This document shows, one piece after another, positions 67 through 5,005 of a stretch of 5,005 bases of DNA; the stretch's first letter is position 1; every line of letters begins with the position of its first letter. This DNA comes from Phycisphaerae bacterium (GTDB lineage: Bacteria > Planctomycetota > Phycisphaerae > Phycisphaerales > SM1A02): assembly GCA_002684755.1 (NCBI GenBank), contig NYVS01000151.1, positions 1 to 5,005 on the forward strand, given 5' to 3'. The position numbers were made by a program, and so were the translations under genes. Below the pieces are notes generated by a model, which was given only the letters and a program-made list of their open reading frames with translations, was not told where the DNA came from and searched no databases.

Positions 67-714
67 ATGGGATTCAGCCGAGTCGCCGCCCTGCATCTGT
101 TCCCGCTCCTGGTCCGGATCACCCTCTGCGCGGTGTTCGTACCGGCGGGATGGTCGAAGATCATGAACCGGGCCGAGTTCTCCGGTCCCGCCGCCGCCAC
201 GATCCGGACCCTCACCGGGGCGTCGACCGCGGATGCGAAGCCGGTCGTGCTCGGCCAGGAACTCTCGCCGCCGTCGGATGCCGCCCGGGCCGAGTCGGAA
301 GCACCCCTCGAAGCAAGACGCCTCTACGGACTCGCCGTGCTGCTCCACGACCATGAGCTGCCATATCCGGTGGTGCAGGCCTGGCTCGCGGCGATCACCG
401 AACTCGTGGGTGGCGGGCTGTTGCTCATCGGCTTCTTCAGCCGGATCTGGGCGGTCGGGCTTTCCGTCGCCATGGGCTTCGCCTTCGCCCTCACCACCCT
501 GCCGATCCTCGAGACGGTCAGCCCGCTCGACCTCGATGTACCGACCTTCACCAAGGCCGCGGCCCAGGTCGCGCTGTTCACCCTCTCGCTCGGAATCGTC
601 CTGACCGGCCCGGGCGGGCTCAGCATCGACCACGCGGTGTTCGGTGCCGCGGCTCGCCCCGCGTCGGAGGAGGAGGATCCCGGACCTCACGACCCGGAAG
701 ACGACGAGGTCTGA
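67..714 (+). CDS. DoxX-family integral membrane protein
   Basis: A 215-residue inner-membrane protein that looks like the DoxX/DoxD family of small four-helix proteins. Members have been linked to quinol or thiosulfate oxidation and to redox balance, but most are uncharacterised, so no reaction is assigned. Four hydrophobic segments are visible: about residues 11-32 (ending AGWSKIM, a typical DoxX helix-1 end), 103-123 (ITELVGGGLLLIGFFSR, with the conserved helix-2 Glu at E112 and Gly-rich run), 127-147 and 163-181. Residues 33-100 form a long polar, partly charged loop between helices 1 and 2, where most DoxX proteins have a shorter one. The C-terminus (199-215) is a strongly acidic tail. 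The start at 67 is supported by a well-placed GGAGG. The next gene begins 89 bases downstream, so shared transcription is possible but not shown. The family call is based on helix pattern and motif, and the function is unknown. Confidence 0.82.
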   Translation: MGFSRVAALHLFPLLVRITLCAVFVPAGWSKIMNRAEFSGPAAATIRTLTGASTADAKPVVLGQELSPPSDAARAESEAPLEARRLYGLAVLLHDHELPYPVVQAWLAAITELVGGGLLLIGFFSRIWAVGLSVAMGFAFALTTLPILETVSPLDLDVPTFTKAAAQVALFTLSLGIVLTGPGGLSIDHAVFGAAARPASEEEDPGPHDPEDDEV

Positions 715-803: not shown

Positions 804-1784
804 ATGACGAAGCCTTCGAACCAACGAGCGTCCCCCGCCGGCCCGGCCGGCCGGCGATCGCGGAAGCGGCGACCCGGCACCCCGCTCGCGTGGTCACTCT
901 CGATCGTCGCCCACGTCCTGCTCCTCGCCTTCGCCTTTCTCGTCACCTGGAGCGTCGTCGACGCGTCGGAGGACGACGTCGAGTCCCGGATTCTCGCCCC
1001 CCCGCCTCCAAGGACGTTCGAACCGGTGTCGACCCTGCGACCGACCGAACCGATCAGACCGGCGCCGACGCTCCCCGCCCGGCGGCCGACCGAATCCCGA
1101 CCGGAGACCGTTCAGGTCGCCGAGGTCGCCGATCTCATCTTCGCCGCCGACGACCTGCTGCTCGACGGCACGGACCTCGCCGGAGGCGAGGGGGACGCCT
1201 CCCTTCCGGGAATCGACTTCGGTGGCGTGGGCGCTCCCGCCGCCCGACGGATCGTCTTCGTGGTCGACGCCAGCGGTTCGATGATCGGCGCCTATCCGGC
1301 GGTGATCGATCAGGTCGAGCGGACCCTTCGCCGCCTCGTCCCCCGCCAGTCCTTTTCGGTGGTGCTGTTCCGGGCCGGCGGTGCCGAACCGCTTCCGACC
1401 GGCGGTCGACTCCGGGCCGCGACCACCCCCGCGATCGACGAGGCGGCCGACTGGATGCGGGACCTCAGGCCGGAGGGTCGCAGCGATCCGGCGGCGGCCT
1501 TGCGAAAGGCCTTCGCGGTCGACCCGGAAGTGGTCTACCTCGTCAGCACCGACATCACGGGGGCGGGCGTCTACGAGATCGACGGCGATGCGTTGATCGA
1601 ACTGCTCGACGAACTCAACCCCGCCGACGACGATGGTCGACGAAAGACGGTGATCCGCTGCATCCAGCTGCTCGACGAGGATCGACTGGGAACATTGCGG
1701 AAGATCGCCCGGATGCACGGTGGCGACGCACAGGAGTCCGGCTTCGCCTTCATCGGCCGTGAAGCGCTCGGGCTGGATCGTTGA
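804..1784 (+). CDS. Membrane-anchored VWA-domain protein with a TonB-like N-terminus
   Basis: A 326-residue protein with three parts. Residues 1-28 are a polar, Arg/Lys-rich tail (RRSRKRR) expected to stay in the cytoplasm. Residues 29-52 are a single membrane helix containing S33-I-V-A-H37, the same Ser-x-x-x-His spacing as S16/H20 in the E. coli TonB anchor. Residues 65-100 are proline-rich (starting APPPPR), like the TonB periplasmic spacer. From about residue 146 to the end is a von Willebrand factor A domain: MIDAS motif DASGSM (D155, S157, S159), a candidate third ligand in GRSDPAAAL (S227) and the strand LVSTD (D250). The metal site therefore looks complete. VWA domains usually bind protein ligands through a divalent metal. 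There is no TonB C-terminal domain. The gene lies just upstream of the exbB-exbD-exbD run, suggesting it is the element that motor acts on; this is inference. The Shine-Dalgarno is weak, but the next in-frame Met is M160, inside the MIDAS motif, so 804 is the only sensible ATG. The TGA stop overlaps a TTG in the frame of the next gene. Confidence 0.88.
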   Translation: MTKPSNQRASPAGPAGRRSRKRRPGTPLAWSLSIVAHVLLLAFAFLVTWSVVDASEDDVESRILAPPPPRTFEPVSTLRPTEPIRPAPTLPARRPTESRPETVQVAEVADLIFAADDLLLDGTDLAGGEGDASLPGIDFGGVGAPAARRIVFVVDASGSMIGAYPAVIDQVERTLRRLVPRQSFSVVLFRAGGAEPLPTGGRLRAATTPAIDEAADWMRDLRPEGRSDPAAALRKAFAVDPEVVYLVSTDITGAGVYEIDGDALIELLDELNPADDDGRRKTVIRCIQLLDEDRLGTLRKIARMHGGDAQESGFAFIGREALGLDR

Positions 1785-1894: not shown

Positions 1895-2743
1895 ATGACC
1901 ATGAATCACCAGACAACCACCCGACGCCGAACCCGACACGAACGCCGCATCCCGCGAGCCTTCCTGTTCGCGACGCTCACGATCCTCGCCACGACCGCCT
2001 CCGTCTCCGCCCAGGCGGATGCCGCCCCGCACAGTTTCGCGGAGGCCTTCTTCATCTCGCACGCGGTCGACGTCAACGGCGTCCGCAGCGTGGAGTGGCT
2101 CGGCAGCCTCGTCATCTGGCTCCTGATGGCCACCAGCGTCGCCAGCATCGGCCTGATCGGGCAGCTCGCCGCGGCGAATCGCCGGGCGAGCATCGCGCCC
2201 GAGGCGGTGATGCATCGCGCCGCGGAGTACGTCGACGCGGGGCGATACGGGGAGACGATGGCGATGCTCTCGGAATCCGATGCCGACAGCGACTTCGCGA
2301 CGATCCTGCTCGGCGGACTCGAGCGGGCCCCCGCCGGATTCCAGTCGATGGAGGGCGGACTCGAACAGGCCGCGACCGAAGTCATCGCCCGCCGGACCCG
2401 CCACGTCGAGATCCTGAACGTGATCGGCCAGGTGAGTCCGATGGTCGGTCTGTTCGGCACCGTGTACGGGATGATCCTCGCGTTCCAGTCGATCGTCGCC
2501 AGCGGCGGCAACGCCGACCCGGTGCTGCTCGCCGGCGGCATCGGCACGGCGCTGGTCACGACGTTCTGGGGCCTCGTGGTCGCGATCCCCGCCCTCGCGG
2601 GATACGCCGCGTTGCGCGGCCGCCTCGACGCGAGCCTCACCGAGGCGATCTCGGAGGCCGAGACGATCCTCGAGAAGTTCAGGCCCGGGGACGCGGCGTC
2701 CGACGCCCGCCTTCGCGCCGCATCGGAGCCTCCGAAACCGTGA
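1895..2743 (+). CDS. exbB: ExbB/TolQ/MotA-family proton channel subunit
   Basis: A 282-residue inner-membrane protein of the MotA/TolQ/ExbB family, which forms the oligomeric stator that uses proton flow to drive TonB- or TolA-type proteins. An Arg-rich start is followed by a hydrophobic stretch (about 22-38) ending SVSAQA, which reads as a cleavable signal peptide; E. coli ExbB lacks one. Three membrane helices follow at about 67-93, 163-190 and 205-229. The two family signatures are clear: SPMVGLFGTVYGM (171-183) and GTALVTTFWGLVVAIPA (207-223). The cytoplasmic loop between helices 1 and 2 is about 70 residues, and the C-terminal tail is short. The start is uncertain: ATG 1895 and ATG 1901 share a weak GGA/GGAAG upstream (1887-1891), ATG 1871 is possible, and a TTG at 1781 would overlap the VWA stop but add a long unlikely tail before the signal peptide. 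The stop overlaps the next gene's GTG. The family call is firm; the cargo is unknown. Confidence 0.92.
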   Translation: MTMNHQTTTRRRTRHERRIPRAFLFATLTILATTASVSAQADAAPHSFAEAFFISHAVDVNGVRSVEWLGSLVIWLLMATSVASIGLIGQLAAANRRASIAPEAVMHRAAEYVDAGRYGETMAMLSESDADSDFATILLGGLERAPAGFQSMEGGLEQAATEVIARRTRHVEILNVIGQVSPMVGLFGTVYGMILAFQSIVASGGNADPVLLAGGIGTALVTTFWGLVVAIPALAGYAALRGRLDASLTEAISEAETILEKFRPGDAASDARLRAASEPPKP

Positions 2744-3237
2744 GCGTCGTCTCGAAGCTCGACGTGGGCCGTCCGGTCCGCACCGGCGCGAACCTGACGC
2801 CGATGATCGACATGACCTTCCTGCTGGTCGTGTTCTTCGTCCTCGTGTCGCGGATCACCGCGGTCGAGCAGGTGCCGATGGAGCTTCCCGTGCCGCGGGA
2901 CCCCGCCGCCGGCGCCGCGGATGAAGCGCCCCGCATCGTGATCAATCTCGTCCACGACGACCGGCCGGATCGTCGACGCGCGACCCTCGAACAACGGGAC
3001 TTCGAACTCGACACCGCGGGCATCGCGTCCCTCGAGACGGAGGTCCGGCGGCGACTTCTCGAGACCCCGGACCTGCAGGTGAATCTCCGAGCCGATCGAC
3101 GACTGCCGTACCGGGCGGTGTCGCCCGTCCTCGACGCCCTCGGACGGTCGGGCCGAGGAACCGATCGGACCGACGGCGTCCGCGTCAATCTCGTGGTGAT
3201 CGACGAGTCCCTCGCCGGGCGGGAGGAGGACACGTGA
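2740..3237 (+). CDS. exbD: ExbD/TolR-family protein, first copy
   Basis: A 165-residue single-pass protein of the ExbD/TolR family, the partner that sits in the pore of the ExbB oligomer. NLTPMIDMTFLL at about 18-29 is the family hallmark; D24 corresponds to the essential membrane Asp (Asp25 in E. coli ExbD) that takes part in proton transfer. The membrane helix spans roughly 22-42. The periplasmic part ends in the typical fold, with NLRADRRLPYRAV (115-127) matching the common 'radr..py..v' pattern and a final strand VRVNLVVID. The chosen GTG at 2740 overlaps the exbB stop as GTGA, with GGAG at 2725-2728 eleven bases upstream. The frame stays open much further upstream, but that part is an Arg-rich shadow of exbB and the hallmark motif begins 17 codons after this GTG. 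Coupled translation with exbB is likely. Confidence 0.92.
   Translation: MSVVSKLDVGRPVRTGANLTPMIDMTFLLVVFFVLVSRITAVEQVPMELPVPRDPAAGAADEAPRIVINLVHDDRPDRRRATLEQRDFELDTAGIASLETEVRRRLLETPDLQVNLRADRRLPYRAVSPVLDALGRSGRGTDRTDGVRVNLVVIDESLAGREEDT
3222..3229 (+). promoter_or_regulatory. Strong Shine-Dalgarno inside the end of the first exbD
   Basis: GGAGGAGG lies four bases before the GTG at 3234 and is part of the coding end of the previous gene (Gly-Arg-Glu-Glu-Asp-Thr). It is the strongest ribosome binding site in the window and decides the start of the second exbD, which has no ATG nearby. Confidence 0.75.
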
Positions 3238-3689
3238 AACACCGACGACGCCCGGAAAAGGCCCAGGTCGAACTCAACCTCACCCCGATGATCGACGTGG
3301 TGTTCCAGCTGCTCATCTACTTCCTGCTCGGCACGAGTTTCGCGGTGGGCGAGCAGACCTTCCGGCTGGACGTCCCGGATCGAGGGGAATCGGTCGAAAT
3401 CGATCCGTTCGAACTCGACGTCACGCCGGTCGTGGTGCAGGTCGCCGGCGCGGGGCGGATCAGCGTCGACGGCCCGTGGGACGGTCCGGTCCACGTCGAT
3501 GCCCTCACCGCGTTCCTCGAAGCACGCCGGTCGGACCGAGGCGGGCTGCTTCCCGTCGACACACCGATCCACGTGGATCCCCTGCCCGGCGTCGACTGGG
3601 GCGAGGCGGTCGAAGCGTTCAATGCGGCGGTCCGCGCGGGATTCGATTCGGTCGGATTCATCGACACGTCCAGCGGAAGCGGCCCCTGA
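3234..3689 (+). CDS. ExbD/TolR-family protein, second copy
   Basis: A 151-residue single-pass protein, a second and divergent ExbD/TolR homologue. A basic start (KHRRRPEK) precedes ELNLTPMIDVVFQLLIYF; D21 is the conserved membrane proton-transfer Asp. The membrane helix runs about 19-38. The periplasmic domain carries several acidic patches (SVEIDPFELD, 53-62) and ends with WGEAVEAFNAAVRAGFDSVGFI, close to the usual 'a...aGf..v.f' end of the family. The middle motif is altered: HVDPLPGVDW replaces the usual 'radr..py'. It differs from the first copy over most of its length, so this is not a recent duplication. The GTG start overlaps the previous stop as GTGA and has a very strong GGAGGAGG. 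Having two ExbDs suggests a heterodimer in the ExbB pore or two alternative motors; this is inference. Confidence 0.9.
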   Translation: MKHRRRPEKAQVELNLTPMIDVVFQLLIYFLLGTSFAVGEQTFRLDVPDRGESVEIDPFELDVTPVVVQVAGAGRISVDGPWDGPVHVDALTAFLEARRSDRGGLLPVDTPIHVDPLPGVDWGEAVEAFNAAVRAGFDSVGFIDTSSGSGP

Positions 3690-5005
3690 TGCCGACGATC
3701 GAGTGCATGCTCCGCTTCGGTGGAATCCTCACGCTGGCACTCACCGCCGGCGTCGCGACCGCGTCGCCGCCCGAGGACGTCATCACCGAGCCACCCGGCC
3801 CGCCGTCCGTCGCCCCCTCCGAAGCGGTCGAGCTCGAGTCCGAGGCCGAAGTCGAGTTCGAGACGATCGAAGACCCGCGGCAACGCGCCGATCGCCGTCT
3901 CGACGCGGCGGCCGCGATCCTCGGTGAGGCGATTCCACCCCGGACTCGACTCCGCCTGACCTGGACGCCCTTCTCGAACACCCTCGCCGAGTCGGTTCGA
4001 ACGCCCCTTGCCCGGGCCCGGAAACTCATCGAGGATGCCTCGTCCGATCTCGCGTCGATCGCCGGCCCGGGACGCGATCGACGCGTCGCGCGGGCCATCT
4101 GCCTCGCCGCGACGCTCGAGACGCTCGAGATCATGAGTCGGGCGGATCGCCCGCGCATCGACTCGGAACCGCTTCGTCGCCTGCATAAAGGACTCGGTGA
4201 CGCCGCGGAACGCACCACCGAACTCGACGGGTCGACGCTCGCCGGTCTCGCGCTGCTCGCACTCGTCGCGGAGGAATCCGCGTCCACCCGCACCGCGGCG
4301 ACCCTGCTCACCCGGGTCCGTGAAAATCCGAAGGGCGTGGACGCGATCGAATTCGAGTGGCTGGATCGCCTCGCGAAGTCAGGCGACGCGACCGCGACGC
4401 GTCGGCTCGCGGTCGCCCGCGGCATGCTCCGCACCCGACGACGCGCCGCGGACCGCCTGCTGCTCGCGGCGATCCTGTTGCAGGCCGCCTCCGAGACGAT
4501 GCCGCCCGCCGAAGCGACGCAGGCCGCACTCCTCGAACTGCTGCGGACCACCGAGGAGAATCCGGTCGTCCGTCCGAAACTCGTTCGCGGTCTCGCGGGA
4601 ATCGCGACCGGAATCTCGACCGACGACCGGGCGGGCACGATGTCGCCGCTGATCGCCCTCGGTCGCGCCATCGAATCCGGGAAGGCCGGCGACCTCGACC
4701 GGGCGATGCGGTACGCCCGACGCGGACTCGACGCCGAGACGGATGACGTCGCGATGGAGGCCCGCCTCGAGTTCGCGAATCTGGCCCTTCGAGCCGAACG
4801 GATCGACGAGGCGATCGAGCAGCTGGTCGCCGCGTGCGAATTGCTTCCGACCCATCCCAGCGCCATTCGTGCCGCGGAGCTCGCGGCACGACTCGCCGAC
4901 GCCGATGCGGACGATCGACGTCATGCCGCCGCGGTTCGCCGCCTCGCGACCGCGATGCCGCGTCACCCCGGCCTCGACGACTGGATGATGCGATCCGGCG
5001 AACGT
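3689..5005 (+). CDS. Exported alpha-helical TPR-like protein (3' end beyond window)
   Basis: An open frame of 439 codons with no stop before the window ends, so the C-terminus is missing. It begins at an ATG overlapping the previous stop (TGATG), with GGAAG at 3675-3679 nine bases upstream; an in-frame ATG at 3707 (M7) is an alternative. Residues 7-25 form a signal peptide (MLRFGGILTLALTAGVATA) with an A-T-A cleavage site before S26, placing the mature protein in the periplasm. Residues 27-43 are Pro-rich and 44-62 strongly acidic. The rest is almost entirely Ala/Leu/Arg-rich helices. Residues about 334-391 (DLDRAMRYARRGLDAE, then a helical run through RIDEAIEQLVAACELLP) look like two degenerate TPR units. 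No catalytic motif is seen. Gene order suggests a periplasmic scaffold or partner of the Exb/VWA complex. TPR proteins also accompany the TonB2/TtpC systems of Vibrio, an analogy rather than proof. The product is otherwise unrecognised. Confidence 0.8.
   Translation, partial: MPTIECMLRFGGILTLALTAGVATASPPEDVITEPPGPPSVAPSEAVELESEAEVEFETIEDPRQRADRRLDAAAAILGEAIPPRTRLRLTWTPFSNTLAESVRTPLARARKLIEDASSDLASIAGPGRDRRVARAICLAATLETLEIMSRADRPRIDSEPLRRLHKGLGDAAERTTELDGSTLAGLALLALVAEESASTRTAATLLTRVRENPKGVDAIEFEWLDRLAKSGDATATRRLAVARGMLRTRRRAADRLLLAAILLQAASETMPPAEATQAALLELLRTTEENPVVRPKLVRGLAGIATGISTDDRAGTMSPLIALGRAIESGKAGDLDRAMRYARRGLDAETDDVAMEARLEFANLALRAERIDEAIEQLVAACELLPTHPSAIRAAELAARLADADADDRRHAAAVRRLATAMPRHPGLDDWMMRSGER

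What the first reader, a model, noticed from the sequence alone, without database searches (positions are those of the whole stretch)
804..1784. TonB-type anchor and proline-rich linker joined to a VWA domain
The N-terminal part of this protein has three TonB features in order: a basic cytoplasmic tail, a lone membrane helix with S33-x-x-x-H37 (TonB S16/H20 spacing, the residues that couple TonB to ExbB-ExbD) and a proline-rich periplasmic stretch. The C-terminal receptor-binding domain is replaced by a complete VWA domain. Next to exbB-exbD-exbD, this suggests a force-transmitting protein whose working end is a metal-dependent ligand-binding domain. I know of no experimentally characterised system of this design, but I cannot search.
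Basis: partly seen in the sequence, partly recalled or inferred. Interest (0 to 1): 0.7.

Follow-up and report, generated by a model that had tools for sequence, protein, structure and literature searches.

The report
TonB-like motor arm ending in VWA
A six-gene cluster in planctomycete bacteria encodes a TonB-like inner-membrane protein that ends in a VWA domain instead of TonB's usual tip, and it likely lets a proton-driven motor pull on a partner protein in the periplasm; this general design was predicted in print in 2025, but the branch seen here, with a neighbouring doxX gene and an altered metal-binding site, appears to be an undescribed variant.

Summary
The 326-aa protein at 804-1784 has a basic tail, one membrane helix with S33-x-x-x-H37, a Pro-rich linker and a VWA fold, and sits in doxX-VWA-exbB-exbD-exbD-TPR. 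S33 and H37 are by far the most conserved helix positions (112 and 115 of 120 VWA genes; next best 72); 26 of 1069 background hydrophobic segments carry the motif. 89 of the 120 have exbB downstream. Partner ExbBs keep the Ser that TonB contacts (80 of 80) but not the Trp. TonB_C and TonB-receptor plugs were not found in 13 of 15 genomes. The design itself is not new: Williams-Jones et al. 2025 (PMC12204202) predict such vWA 'force transducers'. Their main text does not describe this lineage: doxX-linked VWAs have lost the MIDAS aspartate (1 of 44 keep it, against 56 of 58 exbB-linked without doxX), so 'metal-dependent' is doubtful. In six loci without exbB nearby the VWA is fused to the cluster's TPR family. 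Best reading: a new variant of a known, untested kind, with VWA plus TPR as the likely working end.

The parts
67..714 (+). doxX-family membrane protein gene, first gene of the cluster
   Evidence: Pfam DoxX E 5.9e-12; doxX upstream of 44 of 120 VWA genes
804..1784 (+). TonB-like anchored VWA protein, 326 aa
879..968 (+). predicted transmembrane helix, residues 26-55
   Evidence: AlphaFold2 model m7565e774afc6
900..914 (+). S33-x-x-x-H37 motif, equivalent in spacing to TonB S16/H20 and TolA S18/H22
   Evidence: S33 in 112 of 120, H37 in 115 of 120; E. coli residues from PMC12215075
969..1211 (+). Pro-rich, low-confidence periplasmic linker, residues 56-136
   Evidence: 13 Pro in 81 residues; block pLDDT mostly 49-67
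1212..1757 (+). VWA fold, residues 137-318
1266..1280 (+). MIDAS loop 1, D155-A-S157-G-S159 (kept)
   Evidence: D155 and S157 invariant in 82 sequences, S159 in at least 90%
1482..1484 (+). S227, at the MIDAS Thr position
   Evidence: Ser in 31 of 31 doxX+exbB-linked VWAs; Thr in 41 of 58 exbB-linked without doxX
1548..1550 (+). T249, at the MIDAS Asp position (Asp lost)
   Evidence: Asp in 1 of 44 doxX-linked VWAs against 56 of 58 exbB-linked without doxX
1901..2743 (+). exbB
   Evidence: MotA_ExbB E 3.5e-26, scanned from 1904; ATG at 1901 read from the sequence
2135..2137 (+). ExbB Ser78 (numbered from 1904), aligned to ExbB Ser34 / TolQ Ser28, the TonB/TolA contact
   Evidence: 80 of 80 partner ExbBs; profile alignment to solved TolQ/ExbB chains; contact from PMC12215075
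2740..3237 (+). exbD, first copy; overlaps the end of exbB by 4 bases
   Evidence: ExbD E 3.5e-17
3234..3689 (+). exbD, second copy; overlaps the first by 4 bases
   Evidence: ExbD E 4.2e-13
3689..5005 (+). helical-repeat (TPR-like) protein gene with an N-terminal hydrophobic stretch, cut by the window end
   Evidence: family found downstream in 29 of 31 doxX+exbB loci, the other 2 end too early to see it; all-helical AlphaFold2 model of a relative, L011; only weak Pfam TPR matches in the window's own copy (E 0.036)

Best explanation
This is a TonB-like arm with a VWA tip, encoded beside exbB and two exbD genes, and it likely docks through S33/H37 on the ExbB-ExbD proton motor and would pass the motor's force to a periplasmic TPR-repeat protein made from the same cluster. 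Shown here: the anchor motif and its conservation, the gene linkage, the conserved Ser on ExbB, the TM Asp in the 59 ExbDs checked, the VWA-TPR fusions in six loci, and the loss of the MIDAS Asp in the doxX-linked branch. Predicted: the VWA fold and the helical-repeat fold of the TPR partner. Inferred: docking, force transfer, and that the VWA holds the TPR protein without the usual metal switch. Unknown: what the VWA-TPR end acts on, and what DoxX does.
For: S33 112/120 and H37 115/120, next best helix column 72/120; background S-x-x-x-H 26/1069. 89 of 120 VWA genes have exbB downstream on the same strand, 87 of those with two or three exbD hits. Partner ExbB: Ser78 80/80; P229, T186 and T220 invariant in 29/29, aligned to ExbB P190, T148 and T181 through. 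59 of 59 ExbDs in the doxX+exbB loci keep the TM Asp (50 by motif, 9 read by eye as S/A-MID). TonB_C and Plug both unfound in 13 of 15 genomes and both present in the same 2 (completeness of these genomes is not told); BamA/Omp85 in 15 of 15, so an outer membrane is likely. TPR family downstream in 29 of 31 doxX+exbB loci, 2 truncated. In 7 loci with no exbB in the fetched flanks the VWA ORF carries a >500-aa C-terminal extension, which matches the TPR profile in 6.
Against: No experiment. The rest of the SHLS motif is not kept (A44 for Leu, T48 for Ser in the window; both columns vary). The ExbB Trp38 equivalent is aliphatic or Phe in at least 77 of 80. S/H is also kept in genes with no exbB nearby. 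The VWA-less exbB-exbD-exbD sets of such genomes form their own ExbB clade, not inside the doxX-linked one; holding both together is disfavoured but not rejected (p-AU 0.0615). The TPR profile finds a downstream partner in only 36 of 58 exbB-linked VWAs without doxX, and in 7 of 13 doxX-linked ones without exbB, fused ones included. No complex could be modelled here.
Confidence: 0.6

Rival explanations
1. Motor-docked sensor: the VWA-TPR end senses a periplasmic or outer-membrane state and, through S33/H37 on ExbB, switches proton flow, with no useful pulling force.
For: PMC12215075 argues that TonB/TolA S-H contacts could signal to ExbB/TolQ Pro190/187 (passages); Ser78 and P229 of ExbB are invariant here.
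Against: An 81-aa Pro-rich linker and the absence of a recognised TonB in 13 of 15 genomes fit an arm at least as well; the Trp that would relay the signal in E. coli is missing.
Confidence: 0.18
2. Metal-switched adhesin or gliding part, like CglB with the AglRQS motor of Myxococcus (recalled): the VWA binds ligands through a MIDAS metal.
For: exbB-exbD-exbD layout and a VWA; Williams-Jones et al. suggest a gliding role. Relatives of the doxX-less type keep TDG/SDG (120 of the 120 listed of 435 hits).
Against: The window's lineage lacks the MIDAS Asp (1 of 44 keep it) and Thr. The protein is predicted to be anchored in the inner membrane with the VWA on the periplasmic side.
Confidence: 0.08
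3. A static inner-membrane tether: the helix motif is kept for packing beside ExbB, but the VWA-TPR unit is a scaffold that is not energised.
For: S/H also kept in loci without nearby exbB, 24 of 27; SHLS Leu and Ser not kept.
Against: The ExbDs keep the proton-carrying Asp in 59 of 59 and ExbB keeps the channel Thr residues in 29 of 29, so the motor looks active; passages call the TonB/TolA His essential for activity.
Confidence: 0.12

Closest known systems
SHLS-type vWA force transducers of Williams-Jones et al. 2025 (PMC12204202; abstract, section 8 and found passages read)
   Same: TM helix with S and H of SHLS, Pro-rich disordered linker, vWA tip, tolQ-like gene, pair of tolR-like genes and a TPR gene; Planctomycetes and other phyla; function unknown
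   Different: The window's gene order is doxX-VWA-exbB-exbD-exbD-TPR, whereas the paper says vWA is often downstream of the TPR and motor genes in the PVC group. The words DoxX, MIDAS, metal and Phycisphaer do not occur in its main text. Here the MIDAS Asp and Thr are lost and some relatives fuse VWA to TPR.
TonB-ExbB-ExbD
   Same: Anchor helix with S-x-x-x-H, Pro-rich linker, ExbB/ExbD; ExbB Ser34, Pro190, Thr148 and Thr181 equivalents
   Different: No TonB C-terminal domain; VWA instead; no TonB-receptor plug found in 13 of 15 genomes; ExbB Trp38 equivalent missing; two ExbD genes
TolQ-TolR-TolA (Tol-Pal)
   Same: Same motor and anchor logic; a TPR protein (CpoB) accompanies Tol-Pal (PMC12204202)
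   Different: VWA tip rather than the TolA domain III; TolA, TolB and Pal were not searched here
TPH-vWA family of the same paper
   Same: VWA protein next to a tolQ-like gene
   Different: That family lacks SHLS, has a pore Asp in its helix and no exbD; the window has S/H, no acidic residue in helix residues 28-52 and two exbD genes

Membership tests
SHLS-type vWA force transducers (PMC12204202) | TM helix with Ser and His at SHLS spacing | tested here: met
   S33/H37; 112 and 115 of 120
SHLS-type vWA force transducers (PMC12204202) | Leu and final Ser of SHLS | tested here: not met
   A44 and T48 in the window; columns variable. The paper says 'many' members have SHLS, so this does not exclude membership
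SHLS-type vWA force transducers (PMC12204202) | Pro-rich/disordered linker of about 100 residues | tested here: met
   81 residues, 13 Pro; median about 89 in the family; low pLDDT
SHLS-type vWA force transducers (PMC12204202) | vWA-fold C-terminal domain | tested here: met
SHLS-type vWA force transducers (PMC12204202) | tolQ-like gene, two tolR-like genes and a TPR gene nearby | tested here: met
SHLS-type vWA force transducers (PMC12204202) | vWA gene downstream of the motor genes (said to be frequent in PVC) | tested here: not met
   VWA lies upstream of exbB in the window; no same-strand exbB upstream of a VWA was seen in the 120. The paper says 'often', so this does not exclude membership
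SHLS-type vWA force transducers (PMC12204202) | Sequence kinship with the Tichowtungia protein; predicted motor box | not tested
   The Tichowtungia sequence was not obtained; no motor-box test run
TonB | TonB C-terminal domain | tested here: not met
   Pfam finds only VWA families at E up to 1
TPH-vWA (PMC12204202) | No SHLS, pore Asp in helix, no exbD gene | tested here: not met
   S33/H37 present, helix 28-52 without D/E, two exbD genes
VWA with canonical MIDAS metal site | DxSxS plus Thr plus Asp (recalled) | tested here: not met
   DxSxS kept; S227 and T249 in place of Thr and Asp. Metal binding itself not testable here
ExbB/ExbD motor | Channel Thr residues of ExbB and TM Asp of ExbD | tested here: met

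The most novel reading that the evidence does not exclude
A whole branch of proton-driven envelope machines has swapped TonB's tip for a VWA domain whose metal switch was then dismantled, turning a ligand-gated hook into a permanent clasp on a TPR solenoid, with DoxX recruited as a membrane partner; in genomes without a recognisable TonB it would do an envelope job that has no name yet.
Probability: 0.35. Interest if true: 0.7.

Novelty: new variant of a known kind. Interest (0 to 1): 0.5.

Why it matters
The vWA force transducers were proposed in 2025 without any experiment. This report adds broad support for the motor-docking residues and finds no TonB in most of the genomes checked, so the VWA protein could be tested cleanly. 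It also finds a branch in which the metal site has decayed while the motor linkage stayed, which separates two readings of the VWA tip: metal-gated ligand hook, or fixed scaffold for the TPR partner. The natural VWA-TPR fusions name the first partner to test.

Tried and rejected
Considered and dropped: a phage-defence system of Zorya type (PADLOC: no hit at E up to 0.01 for any of six proteins). A DoxX-ExbB link in print: the search listed four papers; passages of one (PMC8638967) name DoxX and ExbB/ExbD/TonB genes apart, so it was no precedent; the other three were seen as listing only. Searches for the design in print: no paper; one, on T11SS cargo; passages read, not this design; both led to PMC12204202; nothing further seen in the listing; one search gave PMC12215075 (passages only). 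That no other source was found rests on these searches of an open-access library without preprints.

Weak or negative: the idea that the VWA-less exbB-exbD-exbD sets are the relocated motors of unlinked VWAs is suggestive only. They occur in 5 of 5 genomes whose window-type VWA lacks exbB nearby (G012, G247, G268, G274, G301; three of these have the VWA-TPR fusion) and in 0 of 7 compared (in G173 and G253 one weak ExbB match each was not fetched; G010, G011 and G253 have an exbB with a single exbD hit instead). Ten more such genomes each show two tandem exbD pairs (coordinates read by eye), but which pair lies by a VWA was not read there. The ExbBs of these sets are not inside the doxX-linked clade. 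The first TPR comparison used iterated E-values; the profile and profile-profile comparison is the one relied on. There no reversed sequence was hit, but about 40 of 2031 background ORFs were, mostly long ORFs that may be the same family in other loci; I did not check each. One script had an empty background set by mistake and was repeated. L143's C-terminal extension does not match the TPR profile. The doxX label needs 6 changes on the VWA tree, so doxX was probably lost or gained more than once.

Limits: the 120 VWA genes are the distinct ones among 121 found in 109 sources (L001-L017, L075-L165, window), taken from the high-scoring end, not at random; some are near copies or tandem pairs, and at least 12 genomes give two loci. 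Under a third of the 266 matching genomes were read; that call scored at most seven candidates per genome and its matches include paralogous VWA groups. The TPR-like model rests on only 11 sequences; its Foldseek matches have low TM-scores and were used only as 'helical solenoid'. The VWA tree was a quick one with weak inner support. The MIDAS definition, CglB/AglRQS, and the view that metal-free VWAs can be protein scaffolds are recalled.

Full report
What is there. The window holds six genes on one strand: doxX 67-714, the VWA protein 804-1784, exbB 1901-2743, exbD 2740-3237, exbD 3234-3689 and a helical-repeat protein from 3689 that runs off the end. The last four overlap by 1 to 4 bases. 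In L001, a relative with long flanks, the same six genes are bounded on both sides by opposite-strand genes (DAHP synthase upstream, a UVR-motif gene downstream). The homologues that carry a name are planctomycetes, mostly Phycisphaerae or Phycisphaerales. In the class of G001, a Phycisphaerales genome, 266 of 298 genomes drawn have a match at E <= 1e-15, paralogous VWA groups included.

The anchor. In 120 distinct VWA genes (109 sources), strict S-x-x-x-H is kept in 111. By column S33 is Ser in 112 and H37 is His in 115; the next most conserved helix positions are W30 (72), L40 (68) and W49 (67). Only 26 of 1069 hydrophobic segments in other ORFs of the same loci carry S-x-x-x-H. The remaining SHLS positions (A44, T48) are variable; PMC12215075 says the same Leu and Ser are less well conserved in Ton (passages). 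Among the 120 listed homologues (of 435) of a doxX-less relative, 118 of the 119 with at least 110 residues before the VWA carry the motif; in the list for the window (120 of 130), 107 of 115, five of the eight misses being proteins whose annotated start lies inside the helix.

The motor side. 89 of 120 VWA genes have exbB downstream on the same strand, 87 of them with two or three exbD hits; the other two have one and none within the fetched stretch. PMC12215075 reports that TonB Ser16/His20 contact ExbB Ser34 and Trp38, with Pro190 behind. A profile of 29 partner ExbBs aligned to solved TolQ and ExbB chains puts the invariant Ser78 (80 of 80) on Ser34/Ser28 and the invariant P229 on Pro190; the Trp38 position is aliphatic or Phe in at least 77 of 80. 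All 59 ExbDs checked in the doxX+exbB loci keep the TM Asp.

Is TonB there anyway? TonB_C and the TonB-receptor plug domain were each found in 2 of 15 genomes, the same two; Omp85/BamA was found in 15 of 15. So most of these likely diderm genomes carry ExbB-ExbD without a recognisable TonB. Their completeness is not told, and TolA, TolB and Pal were not searched.

The VWA tip. AlphaFold2 gives a confident VWA fold. The alignment sets S227 at the Thr of ITIH4's GGTN, the MIDAS Thr. At the MIDAS Asp position (249), doxX-linked VWAs have Asp in 1 of 44 (31 with exbB, 13 without), while exbB-linked VWAs without doxX have it in 56 of 58, and genes with neither in 9 of 18. The exceptions are telling: L085 keeps Asp and is one of the unresolved first branches of the doxX clade; L086 lacks Asp and falls inside that clade with only 301 bases upstream, so its doxX may be cut off; L134 is one of a tandem pair. 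ExbBs of doxX-linked loci form one clade (100/99, 31 plus L086). A quick tree of the VWA domains, with the loop columns left out, needs 3 changes of the Asp label against 39.6 in shuffles, and 6 of the doxX label against 35.8. So the Asp loss marks one lineage, or nearly so.

The partner. A helical-repeat protein family lies downstream in 29 of 31 doxX+exbB loci; in the other two the contig ends first. It was found in 36 of 58 exbB-linked genes without doxX, in 7 of 13 with doxX only (4 fused) and in 7 of 18 with neither (2 fused). A relative is predicted as an all-helical solenoid behind an N-terminal hydrophobic helix. In seven loci with no exbB within the fetched flank the VWA reading frame continues for more than 500 residues, and in six of them this part matches the downstream family (profile-profile probability 99.7%). 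This makes VWA and TPR the likely unit at the far end.

Where exbB is missing nearby. S/H is kept in 24 of 27 such genes with room to see exbB, against 83 of 89 with exbB, so the motif does not depend on linkage. In 5 of 5 such genomes an exbB-exbD-exbD set without VWA lies elsewhere; 0 of 7 compared genomes show one. Its ExbB does not group inside the doxX clade, so whether it drives these VWAs is open.

Known or new. Williams-Jones et al. 2025 (PMC12204202; [quoted passage not shown] The window is of that kind. Their main text has no mention of DoxX, MIDAS, metal or Phycisphaer, and the order they give as frequent in the PVC group differs. I therefore rate it a new variant of a known kind: a doxX-linked branch with a decayed metal site.

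Mechanism, with status. Docking on ExbB by S33/H37: inferred from conservation and from E. coli structures. Proton-driven movement: inferred from the kept ExbD Asp and ExbB Thr. Force through the Pro-rich linker to VWA-TPR: inferred. VWA holding TPR without a metal switch: inferred from the Asp/Thr loss and the fusions. Target and DoxX role: unknown.

Noticed in passing
L091, L093, L097, L098, L102, L106, L134, L142, L145: VWA genes in tandem pairs before exbB; in L097 both copies have Ala for the anchor Ser, and in L098, L106 and L134 one copy lacks the strict S-x-x-x-H.
   Followed up: partly
G001, G241, G259, G265: A BamA/Omp85 match lies about 9-10 kb downstream of the VWA gene on the same strand in four genomes.
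   Followed up: no
e.g. L120, L121, L125-L127, L129-L133, L155-L160, L162, L163: In many doxX-less relatives a roughly 400-aa gene sits between VWA and exbB; of seven such ORFs scanned, one has clear Pfam TPR matches and others weak ones or none.
   Followed up: partly
L139: Four VWA domains with TDG motifs and no exbB nearby, three without the S-x-x-x-H anchor.
   Followed up: no
window 1901-2135: ExbB has an N-terminal extension that looks like a signal peptide plus periplasmic stretch before TM1 (sequence read).
   Followed up: no
window 67-714: The DoxX protein also matches the HvfX family of copper-RiPP maturation below its cut-off (E 3.8e-10, 40.2 against 80 bits).
   Followed up: no
ExbB Trp222 (window, numbered from 1904): A Trp next to the channel Thr is invariant in 29 of 29 partner ExbBs, while the TM1 Trp of E. 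coli ExbB is missing; possibly a swap of position.
   Followed up: no
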